Shown: positions 10,344 to 56,295 of the stretch, one piece after another | Numbering within the stretch: the stretch's first letter is position 1 | Layout: each line of letters begins with the position of its first letter | DNA from: a virus | Virus record (IMG/VR): IMGVR_UViG_3300021197_001974 | Span: 1-58,463 of that record | Length of the DNA stretch: 58,463 nt | Reading direction: 5' to 3' (one strand) | Notes under the pieces: generated by a model | What the model saw: the letters and a program-made list of their open reading frames with translations, nothing else | The model's database searches: none | Told to the model about the DNA's origin: nothing | Program-made: the position numbers and the translations under genes

Positions 10344-10348
10344 CACAA

Positions 10349-37048: not shown

Positions 37049-38024
37049 TACAGCTCACCTCTTTCTTAACCCTTCTTAAATCCTCCTCATACATCATCTC
37101 AGCCAGTTCCCTAAGATTAACAGTATGTTCCCACCCAAGCTTGTCGCGAGCCTTTACGGGGCTTCCTAGCAAGACGGGGACCTCATGTGGGCGGAACAGC
37201 CTGGATTGAATCCTAACGTGCTCATTCACGCTTAATCCAGCGACATCGAATACAATATTTAGAAATTCTCTAACCGTATAAGCACTACCGGTGGCTACAA
37301 CATAATCATCTGGACTGTCTTGCTGTAACATTAGCCACATTGCCTTAACGTAATCGCCAGCAAAGCCCCAGTCTCTCTTGGCATCAAGGTTGCCAAGATA
37401 CAATGTATCTTGTACTCCCAATTTAATCCTCGCGGCAGCAAGAGTTATCTTGCGTGTTACGAAAGTTTCCCCACGGCGGGGAGATTCGTGATTAAACAGG
37501 ATACCAGAAGAGGCGTGCAGTCCATACGACTTTCTATAGTTTCTTACTAAATTATGTGCGAATACCTTTGCACATGCGTAAGGGGAAGCTGGCAATAGCC
37601 TGGTATTTTCATTTTGTGGATACTTTGGATTATCACCGAACATCTCGGAAGAGGAAGCTTGGTAGAATCTGGTGTCTGGGCTTATATGCCTTATGGCATC
37701 CAAAATTCTCAAGGTCCCCATTGCAATTCCATCAACAGTGTTTTCAGGTATCTCAAAAGATACTCGTACATGTGATTGCGCAGCGAGGTTATAAAATTCA
37801 TCGGGCTTGTGCTCGGATAGCAGTCTCCAAATGCACCCTGCATCATTAAGGTCAAAATATCTCATCTGAAAATTCTCATTATCGTAGAAGCCATCAATTC
37901 TTTCAGTGCAGATCAGAGATGTCCTTCTCTTTAGACCTATCACTCTGTAATCTTTCTCTAGCAGCAGCTCTGCCAAATACGAGCCGTCTTGCCCGGTGAT
38001 ACCGGTGATCATAGCAGTCTTCAT
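37041..38024 (-). CDS. gmd: GDP-mannose 4,6-dehydratase
   Basis: 327 residues (family about 345-370). It has ITGITGQDGSYLAELLLEK with the NADP-binding Gly-rich loop, AAQSHVRVSFE, the catalytic SSSEMFG and YACAK, and FNHESPRRGETFVTRKI, a Gmd signature. LGNLDAKRDWGFAGDYVKAM is also diagnostic. The enzyme turns GDP-D-mannose into GDP-4-keto-6-deoxymannose, the first step to GDP-L-fucose and other 6-deoxy sugars. Its start overlaps the stop of fcl (ATGA), as in many bacterial GDP-fucose operons. All catalytic residues are present. Confidence 0.96.
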   Translation of the reverse strand: MKTAMITGITGQDGSYLAELLLEKDYRVIGLKRRTSLICTERIDGFYDNENFQMRYFDLNDAGCIWRLLSEHKPDEFYNLAAQSHVRVSFEIPENTVDGIAMGTLRILDAIRHISPDTRFYQASSSEMFGDNPKYPQNENTRLLPASPYACAKVFAHNLVRNYRKSYGLHASSGILFNHESPRRGETFVTRKITLAAARIKLGVQDTLYLGNLDAKRDWGFAGDYVKAMWLMLQQDSPDDYVVATGSAYTVREFLNIVFDVAGLSVNEHVRIQSRLFRPHEVPVLLGSPVKARDKLGWEHTVNLRELAEMMYEEDLRRVKKEVSCNV

Positions 38025-38959
38025 TTTATTCCTCTCAAATTAGGATAGTTGTCAACAAACCAATCGCAGGTTAGTTTTATACCCTTGTCAAAGCTTGTAT
38101 AATCTTGCTCTTTCCAGCCTAGGGCTAATAAAGCTTCATTGCTACTTGGTTTTCTTAGTTGCCCGCTTGGTTTGGAATCATCCCAGATAACTTCTCCATC
38201 ATATTTAAAATAAGAGCAAACGGACTCAACGACTGCTTTTATACTTCTCTCCTGAGTCAGTCCAATGTTAATCGGATGCTCCCCATTGTAATTTTCTAAT
38301 AGAAAGAACAATATTTTAGATATATCCGAGGCATAGGTGAATTCCCTTAACGGCTCTCCAGTTCCCCAGAAGGTAGGCACTTTATTAGTTTTCACAGCAT
38401 CGTATACTTTTCTAATTATGGCTGGTATAACGTGACCATTCTCTAGGTCAAAATTGTCATGCAGTCCGTAAAGGTTATTGGGAACTGCGCAAATGTAGTT
38501 ACACCCGTATTGCTTCCTAAGAGCCCTAGAATAAACGTCTACCATTCTCTTTGCATATGCATATCCAAAGTTGCTGGAGTGTGGTCTTCCGCTATGAAAT
38601 TGATCTGGGGTAAGTGGGTATTCTGCCTTATCTGGATATACGCAAGTAGATAATAGCGAAACAACTTTGGGTACGCTGTTCTTTTGAGAATAGTTTAGCA
38701 GATTTGTATTGATCAGAATATTATCTTTGTAAAAGTCTGCTATGTAATCATCGTTTCCTTTGACACCACCGACTCTTGCAGCAAGATGTATTATCGCGTT
38801 CGGATTACTATCCCTGATTAAGGTATTCGTTTGAAAAGGATCTCTGAGGTCACAGTCTTTGGATCCAACTAATATAAACTCATGCTTTGTATCAATGTCT
38901 TGAAATCCATGCCCCACCATGCCGGTGCCGCCGGTGACCAATATCCTTTTTTTGATCAT
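38021..38959 (-). CDS. fcl: GDP-L-fucose synthase
   Basis: 312 residues, the usual length. It has GGTGMVGHGF, AARVGGVKGN, LSTCVYPDKAEYPLT, YAYAK (Y-x3-K), PNNLYGLHDNFDLENGHVIP and WGTGEPLREFTY, the full set of family motifs. The enzyme epimerises and reduces GDP-4-keto-6-deoxymannose to GDP-L-fucose with NADPH. It lies immediately upstream of gmd, so the phage encodes the complete two-enzyme route from GDP-mannose. A four-base overlap joins it to the Mpo1-like gene upstream. Confidence 0.95.
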   Translation of the reverse strand: MIKKRILVTGGTGMVGHGFQDIDTKHEFILVGSKDCDLRDPFQTNTLIRDSNPNAIIHLAARVGGVKGNDDYIADFYKDNILINTNLLNYSQKNSVPKVVSLLSTCVYPDKAEYPLTPDQFHSGRPHSSNFGYAYAKRMVDVYSRALRKQYGCNYICAVPNNLYGLHDNFDLENGHVIPAIIRKVYDAVKTNKVPTFWGTGEPLREFTYASDISKILFFLLENYNGEHPINIGLTQERSIKAVVESVCSYFKYDGEVIWDDSKPSGQLRKPSSNEALLALGWKEQDYTSFDKGIKLTCDWFVDNYPNLRGIK

Positions 38960-39246
38960 ATTTTTATTTTGCCCAGTAAGATATCTCTAAACATCAGCCA
39001 ATCAGAAATCTTTGCCTTTATTGGGCTAGAGAATGCAGCCGGCTCATTTTTTTCATAAAAGTAGTGACCGCTCCACGCAAACGGATAAATAATGAATGGG
39101 GCTGTCAAGAGAAGTAGCCAAAGTCCATTATATAAAACACCAGCTACATAAAGTATTGTAACACATTGCCCAATAAAATGTAACCTCCTGCAAATTTTAT
39201 TTTGATGTAAACTCAGATAATACTGATAATATTCTTTTAGGTCCAT
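38956..39246 (-). CDS. Mpo1/DUF962-like small membrane protein
   Basis: 96 residues. The family core is clear: YYLSLHQNKICRRLHFIGQC at the N-terminus, a Leu-rich hydrophobic centre with probably two membrane segments, and then SGHYFYEKNEPAAFSSP. The conserved His residues at 14, 23 and in GHYF and the E-K-N-x-P motif are kept. Short bacterial DUF962 proteins have the same length. In yeast, Mpo1 is an iron(II)-dependent dioxygenase that shortens 2-hydroxy fatty acids by alpha-oxidation. It is unexpected in a sugar cluster, being placed between fcl and a fucosyltransferase-like gene. A role in membrane lipids or lipid-linked glycans is only a guess. Confidence 0.82.
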   Translation of the reverse strand: MDLKEYYQYYLSLHQNKICRRLHFIGQCVTILYVAGVLYNGLWLLLLTAPFIIYPFAWSGHYFYEKNEPAAFSSPIKAKISDWLMFRDILLGKIKI

Positions 39247-40064: not shown

Positions 40065-40837
40065 GATACCTGATCTACCATGTTACCATTAGAGTCTATC
40101 AGCTTTGCCAGCCTGTCCCTATAGGGGAAGTCTGTTACGGGCTTTGTTTTGTCATACTGGTAAAACGGTAAACAAATACTTGGTACATATCCGAGCTTGA
40201 TACCAGTGTTTGACAAATATTCTTCTAATGCTACTTCGGGACAATCAAAATTGTTGTCAGTGCGTGATTCGTCCGCATCTTTTTGATACACAAACGAACA
40301 ATACTTGTTAAAAGTGCTTGGACTGGAAAATGAAAAGAACCAAGGGTCGCGATGACCACTTGGATATATTGTTGTATAAACAAGATCATCCTGTATTTGA
40401 AATCTGGAAACGTCAACTGGCGCTGGAAACATGGAGTTATCTGGGCGACATCTTACAACAACATCATAATCGGAGGAATAGTCCATAGCCATCTTATATG
40501 CCATTCTGATGTTTGTCATCTGATTGTTCATTCTTTTCTTAAAATATCCTAGTGTTCCAAAGTTACTATCATCTAAGGACTCATTGTCGTTAATTTGCAC
40601 ACCTTTTAGAAAAGAGCCATAAATCTTCTCAGTGTCGCGCAGGATCTCGTCGTGACCATATGTGTTGGTTATGTTATATTTTTGAGTAACATTGGCACCG
40701 ACAGTGTGTAGAGTGTTTTTACTGCATGCATAAACAAACACATCAGCATTGTTTGGTTCTATAATATTCTTAATGTGGTTTAGGGCATTTATTTTGTAAT
40801 CTCTTAATTGTCCAGCTATTGTCACAGCAACTTTCAT
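40061..40837 (-). CDS. putative glycosyltransferase (IAGQLRDY family)
   Basis: 258 residues starting MKVAVTIAGQLRDYK. A segment ADVFVYACSKN, a central YDVVVRCRPDNSMF and later LVYTTIYPSG are seen. The V-x-R-[CTL]-R-P-D type motif occurs in unnamed glycosyltransferase-like proteins of viral and bacterial surface-sugar clusters. I see no standard DxD motif. Assignment as a transferase rests on the motif and on neighbours (methyltransferase upstream, fucosyltransferase-like downstream), both joined by ATGA overlaps. The donor and acceptor are unknown. Confidence 0.55.
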   Translation of the reverse strand: MKVAVTIAGQLRDYKINALNHIKNIIEPNNADVFVYACSKNTLHTVGANVTQKYNITNTYGHDEILRDTEKIYGSFLKGVQINDNESLDDSNFGTLGYFKKRMNNQMTNIRMAYKMAMDYSSDYDVVVRCRPDNSMFPAPVDVSRFQIQDDLVYTTIYPSGHRDPWFFSFSSPSTFNKYCSFVYQKDADESRTDNNFDCPEVALEEYLSNTGIKLGYVPSICLPFYQYDKTKPVTDFPYRDRLAKLIDSNGNMVDQVS

Positions 40838-42033
40838 AATACACGAACCTCCGGAAAGTATTTGATAAATCTTATTTCGTCAGAATCAACGATGTCTCTC
40901 GTCTTGCTGCTTATTTCTTTAAAGAAGTTCCAAGCCAAAGGTACAACAACAGTGTCAGGAACACTCTCATTCTGCAAAACCTTTGGATCCCTTATTGGTA
41001 TATTCCGTCCGGGTGTAAGCAAGTCCCACTTTAGCGGGTTGTCGTCAACAATATAGTCAAGCGATATTGACCCAAAATTTAAAAAAGTATTACCTTTGGC
41101 TGCGGCACCATAGCCCACAATTTTACAATTTTTCTGCTTAAAGTCTGCAATCGCAGCTTGCAAGTCTGTTGCTATTGTATGACATTTTTCTGCGTACTTG
41201 GTATAGGTCTCCAGCTCAAACAAGCCAGCCTCTCTCTCAATGGCGATTTGCCTAATTGATTTCTCCTCGCTATGCTCTCCCTTTTTAAGCACAAATACAT
41301 AACTCGTGCCATGGATATCGGTCTTAAAGACATCAGCCAGAGAAAACCCATTTATATTCGCACATTTTTTCATAGAACTTGTGTTAAAAAATGATAAGTG
41401 CTCGTGATAGATCGTGTCAAATTCATTGTTGGTAATCATATCTGCTTGAGATGTCTGTATCATAAGCACACTCTCTTCGTTCATCACGAGCGCACAGGCT
41501 GATAAAAACTCATGCACGTTATCAACGTGAGCAAAAACGTTTTGAGCAATTAGCACATCATACACACGATTCATTTTCGTAGCAACACCTGGGGACCAGT
41601 AGTCACATACAACATCGTGATTTTTATTACTTAGAGAGTGTAGGTTTTCTGCCGGGTCAACGCCAAAAGTATCCCAGCCACGTTCCTTAAATTTATCCAA
41701 CTGAGTTCCATCATTACAAGCTATGTCTAAAATGCTGGCGCCATTTGGTCTAGTCTTCTCGCAAATCTTTGCAAATTCAACAAAATAGTCGTGTAGCGTT
41801 TTACTTGTCCCGCTAACGTATAGGTAATCTTTAAACATTAAGTTTGGATCAACAACTACACTAAGTTGCAGGTGAAAGCAATCTTCACATAAATTTAGAA
41901 CAAGCGGAAAAGACTGCTGCTCAACGCCGTTATGATAACTATTTGCCAGCGGCTGATCGTTGAGGTCTAAAACTTGCCTTAAGTTTTTGCTAGAGCAGAC
42001 CCTACAACTAGTTTTTTCAGTATAACTTTGCAT
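40834..42033 (-). CDS. NDP-hexose C-methyltransferase (SAM-dependent, zinc-binding N-terminus)
   Basis: 399 residues. An N-terminal zinc site is formed by C10, C13, C49 and C52 (CRVC and CEDC). The SAM-binding motif ILDIACNDGTQL lies at 101-112, and IYHEHLSFF follows near residue 210. The C-terminal domain has GYGAAAKGNTFLNF and YIVDDNPLKW. This domain order matches the sugar C-methyltransferases such as TylCIII/NovU-type enzymes that methylate 4-keto-6-deoxyhexoses to make branched-chain sugars. The substrate is probably a 4-keto sugar made by one of the SDR enzymes nearby. It overlaps the upstream SDR gene by 17 bases. Confidence 0.85.
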   Translation of the reverse strand: MQSYTEKTSCRVCSSKNLRQVLDLNDQPLANSYHNGVEQQSFPLVLNLCEDCFHLQLSVVVDPNLMFKDYLYVSGTSKTLHDYFVEFAKICEKTRPNGASILDIACNDGTQLDKFKERGWDTFGVDPAENLHSLSNKNHDVVCDYWSPGVATKMNRVYDVLIAQNVFAHVDNVHEFLSACALVMNEESVLMIQTSQADMITNNEFDTIYHEHLSFFNTSSMKKCANINGFSLADVFKTDIHGTSYVFVLKKGEHSEEKSIRQIAIEREAGLFELETYTKYAEKCHTIATDLQAAIADFKQKNCKIVGYGAAAKGNTFLNFGSISLDYIVDDNPLKWDLLTPGRNIPIRDPKVLQNESVPDTVVVPLAWNFFKEISSKTRDIVDSDEIRFIKYFPEVRVL

Positions 42034-45374: not shown

Positions 45375-46704
45375 GCTGCTCCCTCTGATAAACATATCCA
45401 TACATCGCCAGCCAACGAACCGCCGCACGAATATTGGTATCTCTTGGTGTCGTTGTCACCGTACCTGCGTATCCAATGTATAGATTTTCCCAGTTTATTC
45501 TACCGGATACCAGTTCACCCAGCAAACCAGCTGGCGCTGTAAATTCTGCCGTTCTGCCGTCAAAAGACTCACTAGGACCTATGACTATCTCTGAACTGCA
45601 GTCCATGTCAGAGGCGCTAAAAGCCACTTTGCAGCCAACAATATCAACATTAAACTCTATAAAGTGAACTCTTTTTTCTACAAAAGTGCGAAAACCTCGT
45701 AAAAAATTACCCAATCCTTGTTGCAAGTATTCACTGGTTGGAGCTTCATAATTTTTATATGAATCGCACCCGTTAACCCGACCATACTTCTCATAAAAAT
45801 TATAGGACTCTGATTTTAGTGTCTCTTCGGATAGAGATATGCCAGGAAATTGATTACGCACTTCGATAAAATCAAATGTATCCCCTGGCATCATGTCTAG
45901 CACTGTGGTCTTGTAGTCTCTATAATTGCAGAGGTTTCTTACATGAGCATTTGTTTTAAAGGATGTTCTTTCCCGAAGATCGTCGTTGTCTTTTATAAAT
46001 GCAGCTGCATATCCAGCATAGTTCAAGAATTTGCCGGCGCCTAGACGATGAGCGTTTAGCAGGCTTCCATCTATTATGTTGTCCACGCGCTCGTTATGTA
46101 TTCGCAGCTTCTCCTCTTTTGTGTAATCCGTATAAATATTTGGGTACCCATCAGCTAAGTTGCATTGTGACATATACAAAACATCGCTGCTTGCGAACTT
46201 ACTGGTGTCTCTCTTTAGCCTAGCATATGTTTCGCCCTCTAGTCTTTGCCAATTATCATTAGCATGGATTATAAAGTTCTTTGGTGTCTCTACAGTCAAT
46301 ATTGCATCGTCGGCAGAGATATCATCGTTAATGTATGACTTTATTGTAAAAGCACCACATTTCATCCCCTCTATTGAAGCTTGATCAATATTTGTAAAGC
46401 CGCCCTTCTTAACTCTACTCAAAACACCCTTTGAGCGATACTCGGGTATGATGATTCTTGTGTCTTTGGGGAAAAGTGACAAAAAATCATCATCTAGGTG
46501 ATCATCGTGACCGTGGGATATAAGAATGCTAAAATTTGGGCTCTGCTTAGCCAATGCCACTAAATAAGCAGGGTGCACGCTCACCGGAGGAGTTGGAAGC
46601 CAGCTCCCAAAAGCCGGCTTTTCAAACCACGGGTCAGTTAAGAGAAAATGTTCCCCCTCCTGAATCAGCACTGAGCTATGAGTTATTAACTTTATACTCG
46701 CCAT
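45361..46704 (-). CDS. MBL-fold metallo-hydrolase in a sugar cluster
   Basis: 447 residues. The N-terminal beta-lactamase-like domain has TDPWF near 24-28 and the metal motif H64-G-H-D-D-H69, followed by FIIHANDNWQ. It resembles UlaG-type lactonases and the metallo-beta-lactamase part of CMP-sialic acid hydroxylase-like proteins, but without an N-terminal Rieske domain. The C-terminal 200 residues contain a separate beta-rich part (AEFTAPAGLLGELVSGR, then WENLYIGYAGTV). The substrate is unknown. The start overlaps the half-size aminotransferase gene by 29 bases, which suggests linked expression and perhaps a shared pathway. Confidence 0.75.
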   Translation of the reverse strand: MASIKLITHSSVLIQEGEHFLLTDPWFEKPAFGSWLPTPPVSVHPAYLVALAKQSPNFSILISHGHDDHLDDDFLSLFPKDTRIIIPEYRSKGVLSRVKKGGFTNIDQASIEGMKCGAFTIKSYINDDISADDAILTVETPKNFIIHANDNWQRLEGETYARLKRDTSKFASSDVLYMSQCNLADGYPNIYTDYTKEEKLRIHNERVDNIIDGSLLNAHRLGAGKFLNYAGYAAAFIKDNDDLRERTSFKTNAHVRNLCNYRDYKTTVLDMMPGDTFDFIEVRNQFPGISLSEETLKSESYNFYEKYGRVNGCDSYKNYEAPTSEYLQQGLGNFLRGFRTFVEKRVHFIEFNVDIVGCKVAFSASDMDCSSEIVIGPSESFDGRTAEFTAPAGLLGELVSGRINWENLYIGYAGTVTTTPRDTNIRAAVRWLAMYGYVYQREQRVKQ

Positions 46705-47392
46705 CGCTAAAAATCTTCTTTGTTGTTAGGTCGTGATAATCTAAATGGGTGCATCCATCCGGGTGAACCTCTGCCAATTGATCAAATAAAAGGATTCCTC
46801 TTGCAGCGTCCTCTGGAGTCATATACATGTTCCAACCTATTAGCTCAAATTCGTCCTTATCATAGGGCACCTCAAGGTGTCTGCCCTCGAATGCTGCGAC
46901 CCTAAGCCACCGACTAGCTTCAGGGTCGTCGGTTAAAATCATACCGCCCTTACCAATCGGCAGTCTCTTTTTAATTTGAAATGAGAGACACTGTAGTGTG
47001 CCCTTCTCGTACATGTCTTTTGTAAATCTAACCGCGCTATCAACAACGGGGTATGGATCCAAATAATAGATCCCGCTCCACTCGTAGTCTTTGAATTTTA
47101 TATCGCACCCAGCTAAAACTGCTGCCATTGGGGCGGAGACATACGTTCGCGATGGAAACGTAATCTCATCCGTTGCTTTAAGATACTTTAAAGACAAAAA
47201 CAAAGCATCAGTGCAACTGTCAACCGCAACAGCATACTTGCTGCCAGCATACTCGGCAATCTTATTCTCAAAGATGGTGACTGCATCTCTGGGGTCATTG
47301 ATATCGTATCCAGACTCCTTTAACATATTAATTTCAGGTCGCTGGAAATGATTGGGCAACTTGCCCAGTGGCCAAGGATTGTATTCACTCAT
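46676..47392 (-). CDS. half-size DegT/DnrJ/EryC1/StrS aminotransferase-like protein
   Basis: 238 residues against about 370 for the family. PLP-binding parts are present: DSCTDALFLSLKYL at 58-71, VVDSAVRF with D118, and LSFQIKKRLPIGKGGMIL at 136-153, which holds the likely Schiff-base lysine (141 or 142). The segment between the first and second motif is shortened by some 40 residues, and the C-terminal domain is reduced to about 80. The frame is open and joined to both neighbours, so it looks like a real compact variant. A transaminase on a keto sugar is possible; a non-catalytic role cannot be excluded. Confidence 0.72.
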   Translation of the reverse strand: MSEYNPWPLGKLPNHFQRPEINMLKESGYDINDPRDAVTIFENKIAEYAGSKYAVAVDSCTDALFLSLKYLKATDEITFPSRTYVSAPMAAVLAGCDIKFKDYEWSGIYYLDPYPVVDSAVRFTKDMYEKGTLQCLSFQIKKRLPIGKGGMILTDDPEASRWLRVAAFEGRHLEVPYDKDEFELIGWNMYMTPEDAARGILLFDQLAEVHPDGCTHLDYHDLTTKKIFSDGEYKVNNS

Positions 47393-48336
47393 TTTTGTAT
47401 TCTTTCAATTTCGGATATCAAATTTAATGCCATGTGCTTCCATGTGTATTTATTAATAATCATATCATAAGCATTGTCAACTATTAAGGATCTTTCGTCT
47501 TCGTTGTCAAGATAGTAGGACAACTTATCTGTAAAGTCAGATAGATCATTTTCATACGTCACACAATTAACACCATCAACAAATAATCCACCATATTGTT
47601 CTGGCATGTTGTTACACATTAGCAAAGTTTTTGAAAGCATCACTTCAAAATATCTTGGGCTCACATCTTCTGTGGGACCTGTGGTTGCCAGCCACACGTT
47701 ACATTCATTAATTTTTTTAGCGTAATCCTCTACAGAGCTGATTCTATAATTCAACGTGTTGCTGGAATTCCAAAACGCATTAAACTCACTACCCCTCAAG
47801 ACTTCTTGGATCCTAGTTCTCAAATTTTTGGTTGGTCCTTTAATCTTATTATTCCCATGAAGGGCGCCAGAAAAGCCTATATCGTAAGTTTTCGGAACGT
47901 CTCGTGGGTGAAAGATCTGTGGACTGGCTGTAAACCAAGATCTGATTGATTTTGTTTCGGCGACCTCGCCATGCTTTTTATAAGTTGACTGCGAATCAAG
48001 GAGCAAATCAGCTTTATTAATCTTACAAAAATGTAATTTTTCTGACAGTAGTGATTGTGGCTTATGAAGCATACACACGACTGGGATATTTATGTTGTCT
48101 AGTCCAACAATTTTGCCATAAACGCCTGGGTTTCCTTGTGCAAAATACCCTAACCCGAATATTATGCAATCAACCGTGCCGTCAATACGGCTTAGCAAGT
48201 CATATATATTAGGCACTGGACCCTGGTAAACAAGCACCGTTGCCAGTTCTCGCAACTCTCTATATAAATCCCCATAATACTGATATTGATGAGAGTCGCT
48301 GATCATACCTCCCGAATCAATATAGAGAATGTTCAT
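47389..48336 (-). CDS. GT-B glycosyltransferase (CgeB-like)
   Basis: 315 residues. The C-terminal half has YDIGFSGALHGN, then VSPRYFEVMLSKTLLMCN and a final helix with DNAYDMIINKYTWKHMA, which is typical of CgeB-like and GT1/GT4-type transferases. The R-x-[FY]-E-x-x-[AL] motif binds the nucleotide-sugar donor. It overlaps the aminotransferase and the GT15-like genes by four bases each. The acceptor and donor are not determined. Confidence 0.75.
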   Translation of the reverse strand: MNILYIDSGGMISDSHQYQYYGDLYRELRELATVLVYQGPVPNIYDLLSRIDGTVDCIIFGLGYFAQGNPGVYGKIVGLDNINIPVVCMLHKPQSLLSEKLHFCKINKADLLLDSQSTYKKHGEVAETKSIRSWFTASPQIFHPRDVPKTYDIGFSGALHGNNKIKGPTKNLRTRIQEVLRGSEFNAFWNSSNTLNYRISSVEDYAKKINECNVWLATTGPTEDVSPRYFEVMLSKTLLMCNNMPEQYGGLFVDGVNCVTYENDLSDFTDKLSYYLDNEDERSLIVDNAYDMIINKYTWKHMALNLISEIERIQK

Positions 48337-49223
48337 CGTGAGTTATCTTTCACACCAGGGGCATAATCTTGAAGATGTCGTAGTGCGCCCTGCTCGTGAT
48401 AACCCTCGTCAACAGTCTTAAGATCGTATATATGGTCGCCGCGATGTATTAGATAGAACAAACTATTGATGTCGTTATCGCCCCATCTATATTTATAAAT
48501 TCCGCCATATCTGTTAACCGCTGTAATCCACTGCTTCCACTCTTCACTCTGAAACATTTTTAACTTTATTACATAAGAGTCTGCGACAGGATAAGAGTGA
48601 AAGCTTTGATCGCTCTCCGGGTCTGTTAGCAAATTTTGCATAAATTTTGATTTTGGGGTTATATCATAATGCTTAATGTAGCTTTGAATAAATTTCCACA
48701 AATTGACTCTTGTATCAAAATTACCTTGATGTGGCTTTCTAATCGTTTGATCTACTATCTTCATCGCCCCCATATCTTCGGGGCGGCTTTCCATAATTTC
48801 AAAAAAGTTATATGGAACATCTTTTACAAACATCGACTCGTCATCAATGCTCATAGCATAATCAAATTCTTCAAAATCAGTATTGGGGTATCCATAAAAA
48901 TTACTCATGAAGTGGCACATATGGAGGTACCCCTTTCTTGATGGGGGAAATTGTGTCCTAGAATACCAAATTTCATTTCTATTATAGAAAAGCTCGTCCT
49001 CTTTTAGATGCTCAGGTGTCTTGTAGGGTAGTGATCTAAATAACACATTTTGACCCGTATCTCCAACAATTTGACTTTGCAGCTCGGGAGAGTCATAAAT
49101 GTCGTCAAAATAAAAAACATAAACTGGGTAGTCGTGTTTGTGATTGAACTTTTCCCAGAGAGATTGTAAACAGGGCTTAATACACTTCACCCTAGAAGAG
49201 ATAACAGTAATACACGCTTTCAA
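48333..49223 (-). CDS. GT15-like alpha-1,2-mannosyltransferase homologue
   Basis: 296 residues. The order of motifs matches the GT15 (Kre2/Mnt1) family of fungi: KGYLHMCHFMSNFY at 97-110 (family Y-R-x-M-C-R-F-x-S-G-x-F), DYAMSIDDESMFVKDVPYNF at 121-140 (family Y-W-R-x-E-P-D...C-D-x-x-Y-D-x-F), IYKYRWGDNDINSLFY at 242-257 (family E-R-W-G-D-A-x-x-H-S) and GYHEQ at 274. Fungal enzymes add mannose from GDP-mannose to O- and N-glycans in the Golgi. No signal anchor is present here, as expected for a cytosolic phage enzyme. GDP-mannose is also the substrate of gmd in this cluster. Confidence 0.75.
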   Translation of the reverse strand: MKACITVISSRVKCIKPCLQSLWEKFNHKHDYPVYVFYFDDIYDSPELQSQIVGDTGQNVLFRSLPYKTPEHLKEDELFYNRNEIWYSRTQFPPSRKGYLHMCHFMSNFYGYPNTDFEEFDYAMSIDDESMFVKDVPYNFFEIMESRPEDMGAMKIVDQTIRKPHQGNFDTRVNLWKFIQSYIKHYDITPKSKFMQNLLTDPESDQSFHSYPVADSYVIKLKMFQSEEWKQWITAVNRYGGIYKYRWGDNDINSLFYLIHRGDHIYDLKTVDEGYHEQGALRHLQDYAPGVKDNSR

Positions 49224-49224
49224 A

Positions 49225-50121
49225 CTAGCCTCCTTGATTTAAATAACTTAGTGCTAGTGTCGCGTCCTCTAAACCACACAGGGCGCCTTTATGTCCTGTT
49301 TTTATATAATTAACAAAAGAAGATAGCTGACTATCCAAGGCATCTTCCCTCTTAACGTACAAAGGCTGTGTCTTGTAGCTTGAGTTGTCAATACTCTCGT
49401 ATTTTATTGCACTAAGGTTCAACAGATCAACCTCATAATAGCATGTTTCTGTTAGAATCTTAATCTTTCTTTCTCGGAATGGTAGCATCCAGCTAGTGAG
49501 CATATTAGCACAAGTGCCATCTTCAAATTTAACCATAAACGCAGCAGTATCTTCATTATCAGTAACGTTATTACTAGAAGCTTGTGTGCAGCTTGAGATT
49601 TGCTTTTGTGTTAGTAGGCGAACTAGATCCATGTCGTGAATCCCCAAATCTAGCTTAACACCAACATCCATAATCCTGCCGGGATAAGGGCTCATCCTAG
49701 TTGTAGCGCAGTGCAATATATTTTGACCCTCTAATTCTGGAAGGATGGCTTGGATCGCCGGGTTAAATCTTTCAATGTGTCCAACTGCTGCTAGGCAATT
49801 GTTCTTTTCCGAGAGGGAATGCATTCTTTTCGCTTCATCTACATTGTGTGCGATAGGCTTCTCAACGAAAAGATTAAAACCCCGACTTAAAACCTTTGTT
49901 GCAATAGCCGAGTGCGTAGAAGTTGGGGTCGCGACAACGACAAAATCTAATTTTTCCTTATTAAGCATTTGATCAACATCTGTATAGAAGTTAACACTGG
50001 ATCCTTCTAAGCTCTTTTGGTCACAATCTACGACGGCTACCAAATCAACTAATTCTGAATTTGCCATAACTCTATAGTGCTTTTGACCCATTGAACCAAG
50101 TCCAACTAATCCTGACCTCAT
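49225..50121 (-). CDS. Gfo/Idh/MocA-family sugar oxidoreductase
   Basis: 298 residues. It has GLVGLGSMGQKHYRVM (NAD loop), VVATPTSTHS, FVEKPIAHN with the conserved E-K-P, and GHIERFNPA near residue 120. These match sugar dehydrogenases of the WlbA/WbpB type that oxidise the C3 of a UDP-sugar. The gene lies one base from the GT15-like gene and overlaps a DegT aminotransferase by four bases. That pairing (oxidation then transamination) is the known order for 3-amino sugars. The substrate itself is not shown. Confidence 0.87.
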   Translation of the reverse strand: MRSGLVGLGSMGQKHYRVMANSELVDLVAVVDCDQKSLEGSSVNFYTDVDQMLNKEKLDFVVVATPTSTHSAIATKVLSRGFNLFVEKPIAHNVDEAKRMHSLSEKNNCLAAVGHIERFNPAIQAILPELEGQNILHCATTRMSPYPGRIMDVGVKLDLGIHDMDLVRLLTQKQISSCTQASSNNVTDNEDTAAFMVKFEDGTCANMLTSWMLPFRERKIKILTETCYYEVDLLNLSAIKYESIDNSSYKTQPLYVKREDALDSQLSSFVNYIKTGHKGALCGLEDATLALSYLNQGG

Positions 50122-51221
50122 AGCGATACTAGCTCCTTAACAACATGTAAAAGCTCTTCTTGTTTTAAGTCTGGATATATTGGCAGGGCTAAGACTTCAT
50201 TGCAAGCTTTTTCGCACACAGGAAAATCTCCCTGGGTATATCCAAGGCTAGAAACACAAGGTTGTGTATGTATCGGATATGGATAATAAACAGCGCAGCC
50301 AATACCCTTGTCTGTCAATAGTTTTTTCATTGTGTCTCTATCTTCTACCCTTATGACATACTGATTATATACATGTCGACACTCTGCTAATTTATGTGGA
50401 GTTGCAATATTTGAAAACCTATTGAGATGTTCATTGTAAAAAGAGGCGTTATTTGCGCGACGATCACTCCACTCGTCAATATACTTTAGCTTAACATTCA
50501 AAATACCAGCCTGGAGTGCATCTAGTCTAAAGTTGCCCCCAATGTGATCATAGTGATAGGGGTTGCTCATATCAATGCCGTGCTGTCGTGTGCGCAACAT
50601 CTTGTTATATAGAACCTCATCATTAGTAGTAACCATTCCTCCATCACCAAAAGCCCCTAGATTCTTTGCAGGGAAAAAACTAAAGCAACCCAGAGTCCCC
50701 ATGGATCCAGCGCGCCTATCGTTCCAAATTGCCCCAACTGCCTGCGCGGCATCCTCAATAATGTCCAGGTCGTGCCTATTGGCTATATCAAGGATTGCGT
50801 CCATGTTTGCACATTGTCCAAATAGGTGAACAGGTATGATTGCCTTTGTCTTATCAGTGATGGCATTTTCTATTTTTGTTGTGTCAATGTTAAATGTCTT
50901 TTCACAAATATCAACAAAAACTGGTGTGGCGCCTCTTCTTATGATCGCCTCCACTGTGGCAAAAAAGGTAAAAGGAACTGTGATTACTTCGTCACCAGGA
51001 CCAATATCTAGAGCGACTAAAGACATAATAAGGGCGTCAGTGCCAGAACTGCAACCAACAGCAAACTTCGTGCCGCAGTATTTTGCAAAATTTTGTTCAA
51101 ACTCCTGAACCACTGGTCCATTGACGAACATTTGTGTTTCCATAATTGATTCTACGACTGGCAGTAGCTCGCTCTTTAGGTCCTTATACTGTCTGGTTAA
51201 GTCTAATAATTTTATGTTCAT
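50118..51221 (-). CDS. DegT/DnrJ/EryC1/StrS sugar aminotransferase (WbpE-like)
   Basis: 367 residues, full length. PLP motifs are CSSGTDALIMSL, EDAAQAVGA with D157, and FSFFPAKNLGAFGDGG with Lys186. The chain starts LLDLTRQYKDLKSEL, typical of the WbpE/WlbC group that forms 3-amino sugars from 3-keto sugars. It is paired with the oxidoreductase just downstream. With the hexapeptide acyltransferase (44805-45374) and the 6-dehydrogenase (35319-36164) it could make an acylated 3-amino uronic acid. That pathway is inferred from gene content, not shown. Confidence 0.9.
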   Translation of the reverse strand: MNIKLLDLTRQYKDLKSELLPVVESIMETQMFVNGPVVQEFEQNFAKYCGTKFAVGCSSGTDALIMSLVALDIGPGDEVITVPFTFFATVEAIIRRGATPVFVDICEKTFNIDTTKIENAITDKTKAIIPVHLFGQCANMDAILDIANRHDLDIIEDAAQAVGAIWNDRRAGSMGTLGCFSFFPAKNLGAFGDGGMVTTNDEVLYNKMLRTRQHGIDMSNPYHYDHIGGNFRLDALQAGILNVKLKYIDEWSDRRANNASFYNEHLNRFSNIATPHKLAECRHVYNQYVIRVEDRDTMKKLLTDKGIGCAVYYPYPIHTQPCVSSLGYTQGDFPVCEKACNEVLALPIYPDLKQEELLHVVKELVSL

Positions 51222-52129
51222 TGGCTTACAATCTCCGTTAAAAACTTCTTATATTTTTTTGCAACACCATGCATGCCAACATCATCTAGCTTGTTCCACA
51301 CATTGTTCACTTTGTTTTCAAAATTTAGGACGGGAGGCTTATAAAGCTCAACAGGGTTAAAATCCCATTCCTCTTCTTCAATAATGATTGAGTCGGGACC
51401 AGCAATTTCTTTTGTGCCGCCAGCAGACGTGCAAATCACAGTACATCCGGCAGCTCTCGCGTCAACAACTACATTTGGACAGTGATCCAGCCACGCTAAG
51501 TGTAGGAAATATTTTGACCTTTTATAGATAGAAGTTAGATCATGTACACCTATATTGCCAACGTAATACACTCTATCGTTTATGATTGGATCTTCCGTTA
51601 TCTGTCCAGCCACAATTAGGCAATCCTTTTCGCCCGCGTGCTCAAGAAAATATCTAATATTTTCATTTAGTCTTTTGTGAGGTCTCCAGGAGGCTGCGCA
51701 GCACCAAAGTGTGTCATACTTGTCCAATATGTCGCCCTGAATAGGCTCGACTTGGCTGATATATTCAACATCAGCACCATTGTGAATAACCCTATAGCTC
51801 TTATGTCCTCCAAAATACTTTGTTATCAATTTTCTATTAAAGTCAGATTGAAACACCACGCCGTTTGCATTGTTGTAGGTCCTCTGTATGTTAGTATTTT
51901 GAAGTAGATAATCTTGAGAACTATTGAAATAGATCCCATCTAATCTTTGAACTAGGGGAACCTCATCAAAGTTTCCCCTATATGACTCAATAAAACAAAG
52001 CCTAGCATCTGGAAACCTGTCTTGTTGGAAGGTGACGTCTAGACTTTGTAGATATCTTAAAATTTTGCCAGCAAAATGATTGGGACCGGAGGTGCTACTT
52101 AAATTAACATTCTCAAAATGCACATTCAT
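51218..52129 (-). CDS. GT4-type glycosyltransferase
   Basis: 303 residues. The protein has VIHNGADVEYI, then LWCCAASWRPHKRLNENI (the P-x-K-[GR] donor-binding strand), VYYVGNIGVHDLTSIYKRSKYFLHLAWLD (split over several strands), and CPNVVVDARAAGCTVICTSAGG, the E/D-A-x-A-x-G donor loop with Asp for Glu. This is the standard GT-B, GT4 layout. The N-terminal domain is short, and an SGPNHFAG acceptor loop is seen near residue 14. It is joined to the aminotransferase gene by a four-base overlap. Confidence 0.82.
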   Translation of the reverse strand: MNVHFENVNLSSTSGPNHFAGKILRYLQSLDVTFQQDRFPDARLCFIESYRGNFDEVPLVQRLDGIYFNSSQDYLLQNTNIQRTYNNANGVVFQSDFNRKLITKYFGGHKSYRVIHNGADVEYISQVEPIQGDILDKYDTLWCCAASWRPHKRLNENIRYFLEHAGEKDCLIVAGQITEDPIINDRVYYVGNIGVHDLTSIYKRSKYFLHLAWLDHCPNVVVDARAAGCTVICTSAGGTKEIAGPDSIIIEEEEWDFNPVELYKPPVLNFENKVNNVWNKLDDVGMHGVAKKYKKFLTEIVSQ

Positions 52130-52130
52130 A

Positions 52131-53750
52131 TTAATACTTCCTTGCGTACTTTTTCTTTTTTCTTATCTTCTTCATAAGATCATGTTGCTTTTGTGCTTTT
52201 GTTTTGTTTATCGCGTTAGGGTTTTGTGTATTATAGACATAGGTTACCTCGGGAACGTACATCGCCTTATCCCCAGCCATCTCCAACATGGGGAACATCA
52301 TGGCTTGATCATAGGTCATCTCAAAGAACTTGCCATCATCGTCCTTAAGATCCTCGGGGTCAACATCTCTCCACAGTGAATATCGGTATGTCTTCAAATG
52401 TGATGCTCTCCAGGTATCCTCTCTGAAAGAGTTACTTTCTATCACATGCTTAGGGTACTCACTAGCTTCTGCTCCGATTGTTGCCCTAGGAAATTCCACA
52501 AAACTTCCGTATGTTAACATGCAGCCATCGTTGTAATATTCATTTAATCTAGAAAGCACGTTTCTGCTTGATAGCCAGTCGTCGCCATCTAATACTACAA
52601 TAACATCTTCGGGGTTTGGGTCTGATTGTACAATTAGGTCATATATGTTTTGAAGTGCGTATTTCTTTTCTTTGTTCTGGACGGCATGAAAATTTTCAAG
52701 ATGTGAGATAGCCTGCAGGCACCTTTCGTAAGTGCCATCTGTGGAGATGTCATCGCCGATGAAGCAAGAGAAATTGCTATAATTTTGTGCCTTTACGCTC
52801 TCTACTGCTTGGGCAATCCATCCCTCAGAGTTATAAACTGGTATTATAACCTTGAAGTGGGTGTTTTCATTTGCCTTTTGTTGTTTTTTTGGCACTGGTA
52901 GGTGTGAATTGGTGATTGTTTCGTTCCAAAATTCATTCGTCCTAGACCGAAGATAGTTCCAAGTCTTCTTTACATCGCCATTAAACCACTCTTCGTCTTT
53001 GTGCTGCACATTATCATTAAAAATAGTCTCACAGCCTAACAATTTAGCTTCAATAGCAGTTCTTGGGCATGTGTCTGCACCTCGGGGGAGAAATATAAAC
53101 CCTCGCGACTTGGCAAACTTGTTTAACATCTCTTGGTAGTTTAGACCCTTGAAGACTTCAAAATTTAAATTGTTACTTTTTGCATACTGTATGGAGTCTT
53201 GGGTGCCCTTAATCCAAGATGGTGAGTCTTGAATAAGCCACACATCTTCCTTGTTTGAGGTGTCCAAATTTTGTATATAATCTAAGGTCATTGAGTTAAA
53301 TACGGAACTAAGAACCTTGGTGCCATTTTTTTGCAAAAAGGGATATTTGCTCAAATATCTATCGCGCTGACCCGTTGACATAAACCATAGATTTTTTGCT
53401 TTTGCAAAAAATATTGATACAACTTTACCTCGTGGGCTATTTTCACAATCGCAAGACCCCTCCGCCACAACATGTTTTTCGGGTGATCTATACTTACAAT
53501 ATTTATAGTCGTATTCCACTGCACAATAATTTAAGGTTTTTGCACAAAACATCAACAAATCAGTTGATAAATTTGCAATATTTCCAAAAATCCAAAACTT
53601 GTTCGAATGTAGTTCAACTATATTCTTATTGAGTTCGTGAGATCGTACCTTTATGATAGGCAGGAGACCCCCATCTAAAATAGCCTGGGTCGTGAGTTCT
53701 GCTCCACCGACGTAATCTTCAGCAAAGGCGTCAGACACGCAAATAATCAT
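52131..53750 (-). CDS. two-domain glycosyltransferase (GT-B-like N-terminus fused to GT2)
   Basis: 539 residues. The first 290 look like a GT-B/GT4-type unit (GGAELTTQAIL near the N-terminus, then FIFLPRGADTCPRTAIEAKLLGC, with an E-A-x-x-L-G-C donor loop). Residues 297-520 form a GT2 domain: VIIPVYNSEGWIAQAVESV, GDDISTDGTYE and LDGDDW, whose D-x-D lies near residue 392. The tail is very basic (KKIRKKKKYARKY). Two transferases in one chain often act one after another on a growing glycan. The gene joins its neighbours by a one-base overlap upstream and one base of space downstream. Confidence 0.82.
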   Translation of the reverse strand: MIICVSDAFAEDYVGGAELTTQAILDGGLLPIIKVRSHELNKNIVELHSNKFWIFGNIANLSTDLLMFCAKTLNYCAVEYDYKYCKYRSPEKHVVAEGSCDCENSPRGKVVSIFFAKAKNLWFMSTGQRDRYLSKYPFLQKNGTKVLSSVFNSMTLDYIQNLDTSNKEDVWLIQDSPSWIKGTQDSIQYAKSNNLNFEVFKGLNYQEMLNKFAKSRGFIFLPRGADTCPRTAIEAKLLGCETIFNDNVQHKDEEWFNGDVKKTWNYLRSRTNEFWNETITNSHLPVPKKQQKANENTHFKVIIPVYNSEGWIAQAVESVKAQNYSNFSCFIGDDISTDGTYERCLQAISHLENFHAVQNKEKKYALQNIYDLIVQSDPNPEDVIVVLDGDDWLSSRNVLSRLNEYYNDGCMLTYGSFVEFPRATIGAEASEYPKHVIESNSFREDTWRASHLKTYRYSLWRDVDPEDLKDDDGKFFEMTYDQAMMFPMLEMAGDKAMYVPEVTYVYNTQNPNAINKTKAQKQHDLMKKIRKKKKYARKY

Positions 53751-55030
53751 TACTCACCACTCATTAGGGATGCAAACATGTCATCTATTTCTCTCTGGTC
53801 AGAGGTAAAGGAAAATTCAGTTGATACTAAATCTACAAAATTCTTATACATACCGTCTTCGCTAAAGTTTTCTTTAATGTGTTTCTGTAGTGCATTAGCC
53901 ATCTTTACATGTCGGCGATAATTGACCACAGCATCCCTAATTTTCTTCTTATAACTGACCTCCTTGGCGTAACTCCACATCGCATTTTCATCCAAAACAC
54001 CACCCCAGACTGCTTCTGGTTGAATCGGGGATAAATCATAGTCAACGGGCAAGAAGCAGGGAAGAGTTTTCTTTACACTCTTTCCTTTTCTCTTAACTTT
54101 TCTGGGTGCAACCAGAAAGTCTAGATGACCGCTCCAGTTTGGTGCCACGACCAAGACCCCATTATATGCAGCTTCAAAAATAGGTAGCCCAAAGCCTTCT
54201 CCGTGTGCCAAAGAAACCATACATTTAATTTTTGAATTTTGATATAGACCATTCATCTCTTCAAGGGTCATATAACCATGTAGTAGGTGGACCTTACACT
54301 TTCTATCAGGATAATCTCTTAATATTTCATTTAACTTATCCTGCGTTAAAAGTTTATCTACATGACAGTTCTTCATGATGTTTGTTTTGACAACAAGTCC
54401 CACTTCATCATCTTTAAATTCTTCAATCCACCACCTAACAGTGTTTTCTAGGTTTTTTCTGATACCCCACTGGGCGACGACCAAAAAATTAAAATCATAT
54501 TCTAGGTTTAAATTGATATCAACAGCTGTACAACTTCTTACCGGATAATGTGCAACTCCAACTGGTGTTTGAACACTAACATCTACAATCTCTTCAGTTT
54601 CGGTATTCTTAGCCTTAAAGACAGTGTTAACGATTACTTCCCGCGAAAAATTAGAAATCGTTACGATCTTATCCATTAAGGCGCACTTTTCAATCCACTG
54701 GGGAGCGATTCGGGTTGTCTCTATTCCTGCAGTATATCCAATGTTTATGGGCGCGAGCTTTTCCCATTCATTTGGAATCGTAATCTGCAAAGATGCGTCA
54801 AACTGTATTCCAGATTGAGTTGCTGATATGGTTTTTCTTATCAATTGATCAATCCAATCGCGATCTGGGTCATTAGGCATGAGCCAGCTGCTCTTTCCCC
54901 AGTTTGTTGGATGAAGGTAGACATCAAAGAGGTCTGGGCGTGTTAACAAAGACCTAAGCGCGAATCTAGACTGTTCCCCATAACCAGTCTGTGAGAGAGC
55001 TGGTCCTCTAACAAGAATTGATTTTGTCAT
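53750..55030 (-). CDS. GT4-type glycosyltransferase
   Basis: 426 residues from the ATG at 55030 (MTKSILVRGPALSQTGYGEQ). This start gives the ATGA overlap typical of the block; an in-frame start at 55051 would add seven residues. It has an N-terminal acceptor loop (SQTGYGEQ), HLLHGYMTLEEMNGLYQNS, and SLAHGEGFGLPIFEAAYNGV, with the E-x7-E donor motif. A run of Lys and Arg near residue 305 is unusual. GT4 enzymes of this type build surface or particle glycans. The donor is not predicted. Confidence 0.85.
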   Translation of the reverse strand: MTKSILVRGPALSQTGYGEQSRFALRSLLTRPDLFDVYLHPTNWGKSSWLMPNDPDRDWIDQLIRKTISATQSGIQFDASLQITIPNEWEKLAPINIGYTAGIETTRIAPQWIEKCALMDKIVTISNFSREVIVNTVFKAKNTETEEIVDVSVQTPVGVAHYPVRSCTAVDINLNLEYDFNFLVVAQWGIRKNLENTVRWWIEEFKDDEVGLVVKTNIMKNCHVDKLLTQDKLNEILRDYPDRKCKVHLLHGYMTLEEMNGLYQNSKIKCMVSLAHGEGFGLPIFEAAYNGVLVVAPNWSGHLDFLVAPRKVKRKGKSVKKTLPCFLPVDYDLSPIQPEAVWGGVLDENAMWSYAKEVSYKKKIRDAVVNYRRHVKMANALQKHIKENFSEDGMYKNFVDLVSTEFSFTSDQREIDDMFASLMSGE

Positions 55031-56295
55031 TTTAGTTCTATCATCTCCCAAGTGTTATAATTTTTTCTAGTATCCCAAGATCCATATTTCTCTACCACGC
55101 CATCAATAACCTTTTCCCATTTAGATCCAAAGTCTTTGAACCCATAGTTTTTTAGTACGTGTTCTCTGCCCGCTGAGCCGAGAAGTTGACGTTCTTCCTT
55201 GGAAAAATTATAAAATGTCCTCAATGCAGCGACAAACTGCTTTTCTGATATTCTATCCTCATAGATATATGGAACCTCCTGTGAGCCGATGATAGACTGC
55301 GAGGACGGCTTAATTCCAATTCCAAACCAGGTCTCTCCATTTGTTACTTGTTCCTGCAAGCCTCCTGTCATATTGACAATTATCGGAGTTTCGCATGCCA
55401 AAGATTCAAAAGTCGCGAGACCGAAACCCTCAGCATCTGAAATGTTTATAGTGCAGTCTGCCATGTTATACAGCATCGCGAGATGATCTGGTGGGATCTT
55501 CTGGGAAGAGAGCATAATCTCTCCATTGGTTAAGTTTAATCTTTGCAGAATATGAACTAGATCTTGTCCATGTGGATCTTTTGGATCTGTGTGCATGATC
55601 AAGCGAGCCTTATCGTGTCCAACTTCATCTAAAAAGCTCTTAAACCACCAGATAAGACTACCACTTTGCTTTCTTCTCGCGTTCCTATTGTTCCAGAAGA
55701 AGATCATCCTATCATCGTCGTCGTCGACCATAAGAGTTGATCTCTTAAAGCCAGCAACATCTTCTGGCGATAACTTTTTAAATATATCTGTGTCTACAGC
55801 GTGCGGTAGGTAATGCTCATCAACTTCTGGCGACACTGTTCTTACAATATCGCTGGTGACTTTGGAGATTGATGCGATTACATCATTAGAATCATACCAT
55901 CTTTTGTTAAAGTATGGATGAGGGTAATTATCCCATACATGATAATAGACCATCGGCACTACCGACCTAATTTCATTTTCCATTTCCCATAACCACCCGT
56001 AAAACCTCGGATCTGTCATGAACCAAAGAATATCCGGCTTATGGTTGATCAAGAAGGACCTAACCATATCCGGATTTCCATATCCATCTACTGGATATAC
56101 AATAAAATCGTTATTCCATGGCTCCACCATTGATGGAGAATAATTTTGATGTTTAATCGCCCCAGCCAAACAAATAAAGCGATACTTACCAGTCTTAAGC
56201 ATCGCCTCAATAAAATATTTAGTTTGTGTGCCAACCCCAGATGGTGATAGGGGGTGATCAGAGATGACCATAATGGTCTTTTTGTCTTGTGTCAT
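55027..56295 (-). CDS. GT4-type glycosyltransferase
   Basis: 422 residues. An acceptor-loop motif HPLSPSGVGTQT is near the start, LPHAVDTDIF is central, and IFFWNNRNARRKQSGSLIWW begins the C-terminal domain. The donor motif INISDAEGFGLATFESLACETP shows the family's E-x7-E. Close relatives are frequent in marine T4-like phages. It is the first glycan-block gene to be transcribed, three bases after the nuclease gene, and it overlaps the next GT4 gene by four bases. Confidence 0.86.
   Translation of the reverse strand: MTQDKKTIMVISDHPLSPSGVGTQTKYFIEAMLKTGKYRFICLAGAIKHQNYSPSMVEPWNNDFIVYPVDGYGNPDMVRSFLINHKPDILWFMTDPRFYGWLWEMENEIRSVVPMVYYHVWDNYPHPYFNKRWYDSNDVIASISKVTSDIVRTVSPEVDEHYLPHAVDTDIFKKLSPEDVAGFKRSTLMVDDDDDRMIFFWNNRNARRKQSGSLIWWFKSFLDEVGHDKARLIMHTDPKDPHGQDLVHILQRLNLTNGEIMLSSQKIPPDHLAMLYNMADCTINISDAEGFGLATFESLACETPIIVNMTGGLQEQVTNGETWFGIGIKPSSQSIIGSQEVPYIYEDRISEKQFVAALRTFYNFSKEERQLLGSAGREHVLKNYGFKDFGSKWEKVIDGVVEKYGSWDTRKNYNTWEMIELK

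What the first reader, a model, noticed from the sequence alone, without database searches (positions are those of the whole stretch)
48333..49223. GT15 (Kre2/Mnt1-type) mannosyltransferase homologue in a phage
Three separated blocks match the fungal alpha-1,2-mannosyltransferase family, including the K/Y-x-x-M-C-x-F block and the R-W-G-D-x-x-x-x-S block. GT15 is known mainly from fungi. A phage copy without a membrane anchor, in a cluster that also uses GDP-mannose, would extend the family and raise the question of its origin.
Basis: partly seen in the sequence, partly recalled or inferred. Interest (0 to 1): 0.75.

Follow-up and report, generated by a model that had tools for sequence, protein, structure and literature searches.

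The report
Yeast-type mannosyltransferase gene in marine phages
A sugar-adding enzyme of a family known mainly from yeast and other fungi (GT15, Kre2/Mnt1 type) is encoded by this uncultured bacterial virus, by 34 other viral contigs, and by about 1% of SAR11 bacterial genomes, where it sits among genes that build surface sugars, so the family is wider than fungi and the viral gene does not look like a recent loan from them.

Summary
The ORF is 48333-49223 on the MINUS strand (296 aa, TTG start after a perfect AGGAGG). It matches Pfam GT15 alone (E 4e-14, twice the cut-off). Its predicted structure (pLDDT 89) has fungal GT15 structures as its eleven best hits. Most donor-site and catalytic residues are kept; the metal Glu is Asp, giving a DD(E/D) motif.

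It is a phage gene: six GT15-bearing contigs also carry a T4-type capsid gene. Thirty-four other viral contigs have GT15; none of 50,697 GenBank phage records does. The nearest cellular relatives found are chromosomal surface-glycan genes of SAR11 bacteria (about 1% of genomes) and one Omnitrophota genome. A recent fungal origin is not supported; the deep root is unresolved.

A PF13524 glycosyltransferase lies nearby in 26 of 28 phage loci and in a SAR11 and an Omnitrophota locus. The window also encodes GDP-mannose 4,6-dehydratase and other glycosyltransferases, but no multi-spanning export protein. Most likely it is a soluble, retaining GDP-sugar transferase in a phage-borne surface-glycan pathway. 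In the window's branch two donor-sugar contacts changed (Arg to Ser/Thr, Asn to Asp), so the donor may not be mannose. Donor, acceptor, linkage and role are untested.

The parts
48333..49223 (-). GT15 (Kre2/Mnt1-type) glycosyltransferase, 296 aa, TTG start
   Evidence: PF01793 E 4.4e-14; PDB profile search Kre2 1.7e-12; AlphaFold2 pLDDT 89.4 and Foldseek top 11 all GT15
49229..49234 (-). Shine-Dalgarno sequence AGGAGG, five bases before the TTG start
   Evidence: read from sequence
48837..48845 (-). DDE motif (residues 127-129), metal-site equivalent of the fungal EPD/EPN motif
   Evidence: alignment to Kre2/Ktr4; D127 and D128 invariant in the branch
48477..48488 (-). RWGD motif (residues 246-249); Asp equivalent to Asp350 of Candida Mnt1
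   Evidence: invariant in all GT15 rows aligned
47389..48336 (-). Partner glycosyltransferase PF13524, overlapping GT15 by ATGA
   Evidence: Pfam E 4e-14; homologue near GT15 in 26 of 28 phage loci, one SAR11 and one Omnitrophota locus
49225..50121 (-). GFO/IDH/MocA oxidoreductase, nearest to UDP-GlcNAc 3-dehydrogenase models (below cut-off)
50118..51221 (-). DegT/PseC/WecE-type sugar aminotransferase (below equivalog cut-offs)
51218..52129 (-). GT4-like glycosyltransferase
   Evidence: PF00534
52131..53750 (-). Protein with a GT2 domain in its C-terminal half
   Evidence: PF00535 residues 301-421
53750..55051 (-). GT4-like glycosyltransferase
   Evidence: PF00534
55027..56295 (-). GT4-like glycosyltransferase
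   Evidence: PF00534
37041..38024 (-). GDP-mannose 4,6-dehydratase (Gmd)
   Evidence: TIGR01472 446.9 bits, cut-off 415
38021..38959 (-). GDP-L-fucose-synthase-like epimerase/reductase (below equivalog cut-off)
   Evidence: NF047922 243 bits, cut-off 500
40834..42033 (-). Sugar C-methyltransferase, with a homologue in the SAR11 GT15 locus
   Evidence: PF08484; homologue in L030
21864..23660 (-). T4-type baseplate wedge protein; shows that the contig is a contractile-tailed phage
   Evidence: phrog_219 E 4.5e-26

Best explanation
The gene encodes a genuine GT15 enzyme: a soluble, GT-A-fold, metal-dependent, GDP-sugar-using, anomer-retaining glycosyltransferase, carried by a T4-like phage. SHOWN by computation: family membership, fold, conservation of most GDP-site residues and of the catalytic Tyr and Asp, phage context, and a conserved neighbouring PF13524 glycosyltransferase. 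INFERRED: it binds GDP plus Mn(2+) through D127 and usually H276, and transfers a mannose-like sugar with retention onto a growing oligosaccharide, next to or after the PF13524 enzyme. The glycan pathway is largely phage-encoded (Gmd, epimerases, aminotransferases, a C-methyltransferase, other glycosyltransferases). The most likely purpose is to change or replace the surface glycan (O-chain type) of the infected cell, using the host's lipid carrier and export machinery, so that competing phages cannot adsorb. The phage branch shares ancestry with SAR11 and Omnitrophota glycan-locus genes, with no sign of recent transfer from fungi. Separate confidences: GT15 membership 0.96; active GDP-sugar glycosyltransferase 0.8; donor GDP-mannose rather than a GDP-deoxysugar 0.5; host surface-glycan remodelling 0.5.
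For: Family: Pfam, PDB sequence search, fold, profile-profile with fungal sequences 97.9% probability. Active site (with residue roles from PMC4546622 and PMC11077754): the Tyr equivalent to Kre2 Tyr220, the RWGD Asp, the acceptor-side Arg and the guanine-side Arg are invariant in the window's branch; the metal Glu is Asp; the metal His is present in 22 of 27. Phage context: baseplate wedge gene on the window; GT15 and T4-type capsid gene on the same contig in six cases, including 186-203 kb contigs. Partner: PF13524 gene near GT15 in 26 of 28 phage loci, one SAR11 and one Omnitrophota locus; a similar-looking gene lies directly upstream of GT15 in the second phage group. Gmd on the window passes the equivalog cut-off; a Gmd-like gene is in the SAR11 locus and directly follows GT15 in phage contig L080. 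The bacterial copy is chromosomal: prfA, ispG, secA, dnaX and aroA on the same 59-kb contig. Tree. Function by analogy: SAR11 myophages carry glycosyltransferases in a host-recognition island, proposed to alter the host O-chain and block coinfection (PMC7029224).
Against: The donor-sugar Arg (Arg234 in Candida Mnt1) is Ser, Thr or Val, and the donor-sugar Asn (Asn316) is Asp, in the window's branch but not in the other phage branches, so mannose may not be the donor. The Tyr that stacks on the acceptor, the Glu called Glu329 in Kre2 and two disulfide cysteines have no equivalent. No initiating transferase, flippase or polymerase was seen in the glycan cluster, so export must rely on the host or the acceptor must be inside the cell. 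The host is not established: the nearest cultured relatives by capsid and baseplate are distant. No biochemical data exist.
Confidence: 0.55

Rival explanations
1. Virion decoration: the cluster builds a glycan on phage structural proteins (tail fibre or capsid) in the cytoplasm, and GT15 elongates that glycan.
For: The cluster lies beside very large ORFs of 2945 and 2367 aa and baseplate genes, its enzymes look soluble and there is no export gene (99), which a cytoplasmic protein acceptor would explain without host machinery.
Against: The bacterial relatives sit in chromosomal surface-glycan loci (25, 88, 92), and the number of precursor enzymes (Gmd, epimerases, aminotransferases, C-methyltransferase) looks like a polysaccharide pathway.
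Confidence: 0.27
2. The enzyme transfers a different GDP-sugar, such as GDP-L-fucose or another GDP-6-deoxysugar made by the phage's own Gmd and fucose-synthase-like protein, not mannose. (This concerns the donor and is compatible with either destination of the glycan.)
For: Gmd and an Fcl-like gene are on the same contig; the two donor-sugar contacts changed together only in this branch (82).
Against: The RWGD Asp that holds O6 of the donor in retaining GT-A enzymes (PMC11077754) is invariant (82), which fits a sugar with a 6-hydroxyl. Gmd-like genes also neighbour GT15 in loci that keep the Arg and Asn (25, 82, 92).
Confidence: 0.35
3. Recent horizontal transfer from a fungus to this phage lineage.
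For: The family is known mainly from fungi, and one other phage protein (L080) matches yeast Ktr4 at E 1.7e-24.
Against: The window protein has 17-20% identity to the fungal structures; it is over 40% identical to other phages, and its branch is nearer to SAR11 genes than to fungi. Bacterial members are chromosomal. An ancient fungal rooting at this branch is not rejected (AU p 0.16).
Confidence: 0.03
4. Another GT-A family (for example GT8 or GT6), with the GT15 match a by-product of the shared fold.
For: GT-A families share the fold, and GT8 is reported as the commonest glycosyltransferase family in SAR11 myophages (PMC7029224).
Against: Pfam finds GT15 only, in all 25 members; Foldseek falls from TM about 0.7 (GT15) to 0.46 (UGGT) and about 0.42 (GT6).
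Confidence: 0.02

Closest known systems
Kre2p/Mnt1p and Ktr4p (GT15, Saccharomyces; 1s4n, 5a07) and CmsA/Ktr4 (Aspergillus; 7boo)
   Same: Profile match, GT-A fold (TM 0.66-0.72), Tyr of the YxxM loop, RWGD Asp, guanine-side Arg, an acid at the metal site and mostly its His.
   Different: 17-20% identity; no membrane anchor or stem; DD(E/D) instead of EPD/EPN; donor-sugar Arg to Ser/Thr and Asn to Asp; no equivalents of the cysteines in LYCDI and NLCHFW; different acceptor-side residues.
SAR11 (Pelagibacterales) chromosomal GT15 relatives, L030, L034, L035, L094
   Same: Same FxxxRxGYLHM-like block, DDD/DDE motif and RWGD; surface-glycan loci; in L030 a PF13524 glycosyltransferase and a Gmd-like gene nearby.
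   Different: About 30% identical; Arg and Asn at the donor-sugar positions kept in some copies; longer C-terminal tail.
Phage group B (L052-L054, contigs up to 203 kb) and phage C (L080)
   Same: GT15 in large tailed-phage genomes, beside glycosyltransferase or Gmd-like genes.
   Different: Group B is 45-48% identical to the SAR11 protein, with two GT15 genes in two contigs; L080 keeps the fungal-type NFEI block and RxDxD and matches yeast Ktr4 at E 1.7e-24.
Surface-glycan islands of pelagimyophages and cyanomyophages (PMC7029224)
   Same: T4-like marine phages with many glycosyltransferases and deoxysugar genes in a host-recognition island.
   Different: That paper names GT8 as the commonest family; the full-text searches made here found no paper that reports GT15 in a phage.

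Membership tests
GT15 (Kre2/Mnt1 family) | Sequence similarity to the family profile above the curated cut-off | tested here: met
   PF01793 53.1 bits against 25, E 4.4e-14, no other Pfam hit; 25 of 25 relatives
GT15 (Kre2/Mnt1 family) | GT-A fold closest to Kre2/Ktr4 | tested here: met
   Foldseek top 11 all GT15, E 1e-13 to 3e-12; next family E 2e-8
GT15 (Kre2/Mnt1 family) | Catalytic-site Tyr (Kre2 Tyr220) and RWGD Asp | tested here: met
   Y99 and D249 invariant in the branch
GT15 (Kre2/Mnt1 family) | Mn site: Glu of the EPD/EPN motif plus a His | tested here: inconclusive
   Asp replaces Glu (27 of 27) and His is present in 22 of 27; the ligand type is kept but the motif is DD(E/D)
GT15 (Kre2/Mnt1 family) | Donor-sugar contacts Arg234 and Asn316 (Candida Mnt1 numbering); bear on specificity, not on membership by sequence | tested here: not met
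   Ser/Thr/Val and Asp in the window's branch
GT15 (Kre2/Mnt1 family) | Type II membrane protein with stem (a trait of the fungal Golgi members, not of the catalytic family) | tested here: not met
   Highest 19-residue hydropathy 0.98
GT15 (Kre2/Mnt1 family) | Alpha-1,2-mannosyl transfer from GDP-mannose | not testable with these tools
   needs an enzyme assay
GT8 or GT6 (other retaining GT-A families) | Profile or fold match better than to GT15 | tested here: not met
   no Pfam hit to either; fold matches much weaker

The most novel reading that the evidence does not exclude
GT15 is an old prokaryotic and phage glycosyltransferase family, of which the fungal Golgi enzymes are one derived branch with an EPD metal motif. 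Marine T4-like phages and SAR11 bacteria carry diverse members, and the window's branch has moved to a donor sugar other than mannose.
Probability: 0.25. Interest if true: 0.75.

Novelty: new variant of a known kind. Interest (0 to 1): 0.55.

Why it matters
GT15 enzymes build the mannan coat of fungi and are antifungal targets; papers state that the family is absent from higher eukaryotes and humans (PMC4546622, PMC11077754). A viral and bacterial branch gives soluble, anchor-free members with a DXD-like metal motif, useful for mechanism and for the origin of the fungal enzymes. It also gives a marker gene for a class of phages that carry their own surface-glycan pathways and share genes with SAR11, among the most abundant bacteria in the sea.

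Tried and rejected
Rejected: another GT-A family; recent fungal transfer (identity, tree; but ancient rooting unresolved, AU p 0.16); cellular contamination of the viral bins (capsid and GT15 on the same contigs); SAR11 copy being a prophage (housekeeping genes on its contig). Led nowhere: phage and plasmid records by tblastn with the window protein, and phage records with three other queries, no match; PHROGs and NCBIfam have no model that matches it; fungal-type patterns in viral contigs gave nothing; a single-sequence scan with the SAR11 protein gave nothing though its alignment did; relatives of a virus record are not drawn. One SAR11 hit (L093) was not read into the tree because my script's motif rule did not extract its frame. 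A first residue mapping misplaced the Tyr220 equivalent; it was corrected by spacing to the Met and by the joint alignment. The alignment of Arg11 to the guanine Arg rests on motif anchoring and one fungal sequence.

Full report
1. Observation. The interval 48333-49223 holds an intact ORF of 296 aa on the minus strand; on the plus strand the same interval is broken by stops. It has a perfect Shine-Dalgarno sequence five bases before its TTG start and overlaps the next gene by ATGA, so it is read as part of a tightly packed array; minus-strand ORFs add up to 99.6% of the window's length.

2. Family. Pfam gives one family only, Glyco_transf_15, E 4.4e-14, twice the cut-off, over residues 6-257. 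A single-sequence search of the PDB finds Kre2 (4.5e-6) and Aspergillus Ktr4 (0.005); a profile from 25 relatives finds Kre2, Aspergillus Ktr4 and yeast Ktr4 at 1.7e-12 to 2e-10 and nothing else. All 25 relatives match PF01793 and no other family. The AlphaFold2 model has mean pLDDT 89.4 and pTM 0.88. Foldseek against the PDB ranks eleven GT15 chains first (TM on query 0.66-0.72), then UDP-glucose:glycoprotein glucosyltransferase (0.46) and GT6 enzymes (about 0.42). Against predicted viral structures the best hit is weaker (TM 0.57, a Megaviridae environmental protein).

3. Active site. Residue roles are taken from two papers on fungal enzymes (PMC4546622 for Ktr4p; PMC11077754 for Candida Mnt1). 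In the joint alignment the window's branch of 27 proteins keeps, without exception, the Tyr of the YxxM loop (Kre2 Tyr220), the Asp of RWGD (Asp350 in Mnt1, holds O4 and O6 of the donor), the Arg of RWGD (acceptor contact), an Asp aligned with the guanine-binding Asp, and an Arg at the place of the guanine-stacking Arg. The metal-binding Glu is Asp in all viral and bacterial rows, within DD(E/D), or DTD in L080; the three fungal sequences have EPD, EPN and EPK. The metal His is present in 22 of 27. Two donor-sugar contacts differ in this branch alone: Arg to mostly Thr, Ser or Val, and Asn to Asp (26 of 27). Group B phages, L080 and the Omnitrophota protein keep both; of three SAR11 copies one has Arg (one Lys, one Phe) and two have Asn. 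This is the main reason to doubt that the donor is plain GDP-mannose.

4. It is a phage gene. The window has a T4-type baseplate wedge protein (phrog_219, E 4.5e-26) and a weak match to a late sigma factor. Twenty-eight IMG/VR contigs encode close relatives, and a search with the bacterial alignment added six more, of which L080 is divergent. T4-type capsid protein (PF07068) lies on the same contig as GT15 in six cases: contigs of 194, 185, 106, 70, 203 and 186 kb. The 50,697 GenBank phage records have none: tblastn with the window protein, L080, L053 and L031 gives no match. The nearest cultured relatives by baseplate and capsid are Flavobacterium phage immuto and Microcystis phage Mel-JY01, at about 30-46% identity, so the host is not known.

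5. Bacterial members. Profile searches found PF01793 above cut-off in 2 of 297 Pelagibacterales genomes (3 at E 0.001), 1 of 237 Omnitrophota, 1 of 399 Pseudomonadota and 1 of 385 Alphaproteobacteria (the seed itself in the last three), and in none of 14 control genomes. With the bacterial alignment, 4 of 397 Pelagibacteraceae match. The SAR11 gene is chromosomal: its 59-kb contig carries prfA, ispG, secA, dnaX and aroA, and the gene lies among sugar genes that include a Gmd-like and a C-methyltransferase gene.

6. Neighbours. The PF13524 glycosyltransferase 47389-48336 has a homologue near GT15 in 26 of 28 phage loci, often the next gene, and in the SAR11 and Omnitrophota loci; in group B a similar-looking gene lies directly upstream of GT15 (by eye). 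The window also codes for GDP-mannose 4,6-dehydratase (446.9 bits, cut-off 415), a GDP-fucose-synthase-like protein, sugar epimerases, aminotransferases, a C-methyltransferase and further glycosyltransferases. Among the cluster proteins only the 96-aa Mpo1-like one looks membrane-bound: no initiating transferase, flippase or polymerase was seen. The window is a fragment, so this absence is limited to it.

7. History. The tree places the window's branch (99/99) as sister to group B plus SAR11, then Omnitrophota; the three fungal enzymes are joined by a branch of about 3 changes per site. L080 groups with fungi (99/95) but on a very long branch. SAR11 copies form one group beside group B phages, which fits exchange between SAR11 and phages in either direction. 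A tree in which the window's branch and the fungi are joined is not rejected (AU p 0.16). So recent transfer from fungi is not supported, and the deep root is open. Only three fungal sequences were at hand.

8. Mechanism. Most likely the protein binds a GDP-sugar and Mn(2+), and transfers the sugar with retention to a glycan made by the phage's own pathway. Whether that glycan is placed on the cell surface or on the virion is not decided; for SAR11 myophages a change of the host O-chain to block coinfection has been proposed (PMC7029224). I give 0.5 to the surface and 0.27 to the virion.

9. Novelty. Full-text searches of open-access papers found no report of GT15 in a phage; one soil paper calls PF01793 eukaryote-associated (PMC11237643). 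CAZy and subscription journals could not be searched, and uncharacterised bacterial GT15 entries may already be listed there. I therefore rate it a new variant of a known kind.

Noticed in passing
L080:7842-8675 (IMGVR_UViG_3300042465_007929): A phage contig (UvsX-like, DnaB-like helicase and primase genes nearby) encodes a GT15 far closer to the fungal enzymes (yeast Ktr4 E 1.7e-24), with NFEI and RxDxD blocks, and directly followed by a Gmd-like gene. It may be the best lead to the link between fungal and prokaryotic GT15.
   Followed up: partly
L053:7995-8900 and 9623-10708: Two GT15 genes in one phage contig of 203 kb, also seen in L054's contig, separated by one small gene.
   Followed up: partly
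window 38956-39246: 96-aa Mpo1-like protein (PF06127, E 9e-30), a membrane protein family named after a yeast dioxygenase, inside the sugar cluster; homologues in 7 of the phage loci.
   Followed up: no
window 39237-40064 and 40061-40837: Two neighbouring proteins without any Pfam or NCBIfam match, conserved in 17 and 13 of the GT15 phage loci.
   Followed up: no
window 35319-36164: Shortened UDP-glucose-dehydrogenase-like ORF (281 aa; profile positions 70-295 of 413): seems to lack the start and the C-terminal domain.
   Followed up: no
window 46676-47392: Shortened DegT-type aminotransferase (238 aa), a second one beside the full-length 50118-51221.
   Followed up: no
L031:7944-9641: The Omnitrophota GT15 is fused to a C-terminal methyltransferase domain (PF13578).
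   Followed up: no
window 11402-20239 and 24124-31227: Two very large ORFs (2945 and 2367 aa) near baseplate genes; the second has no PHROG match.
   Followed up: no
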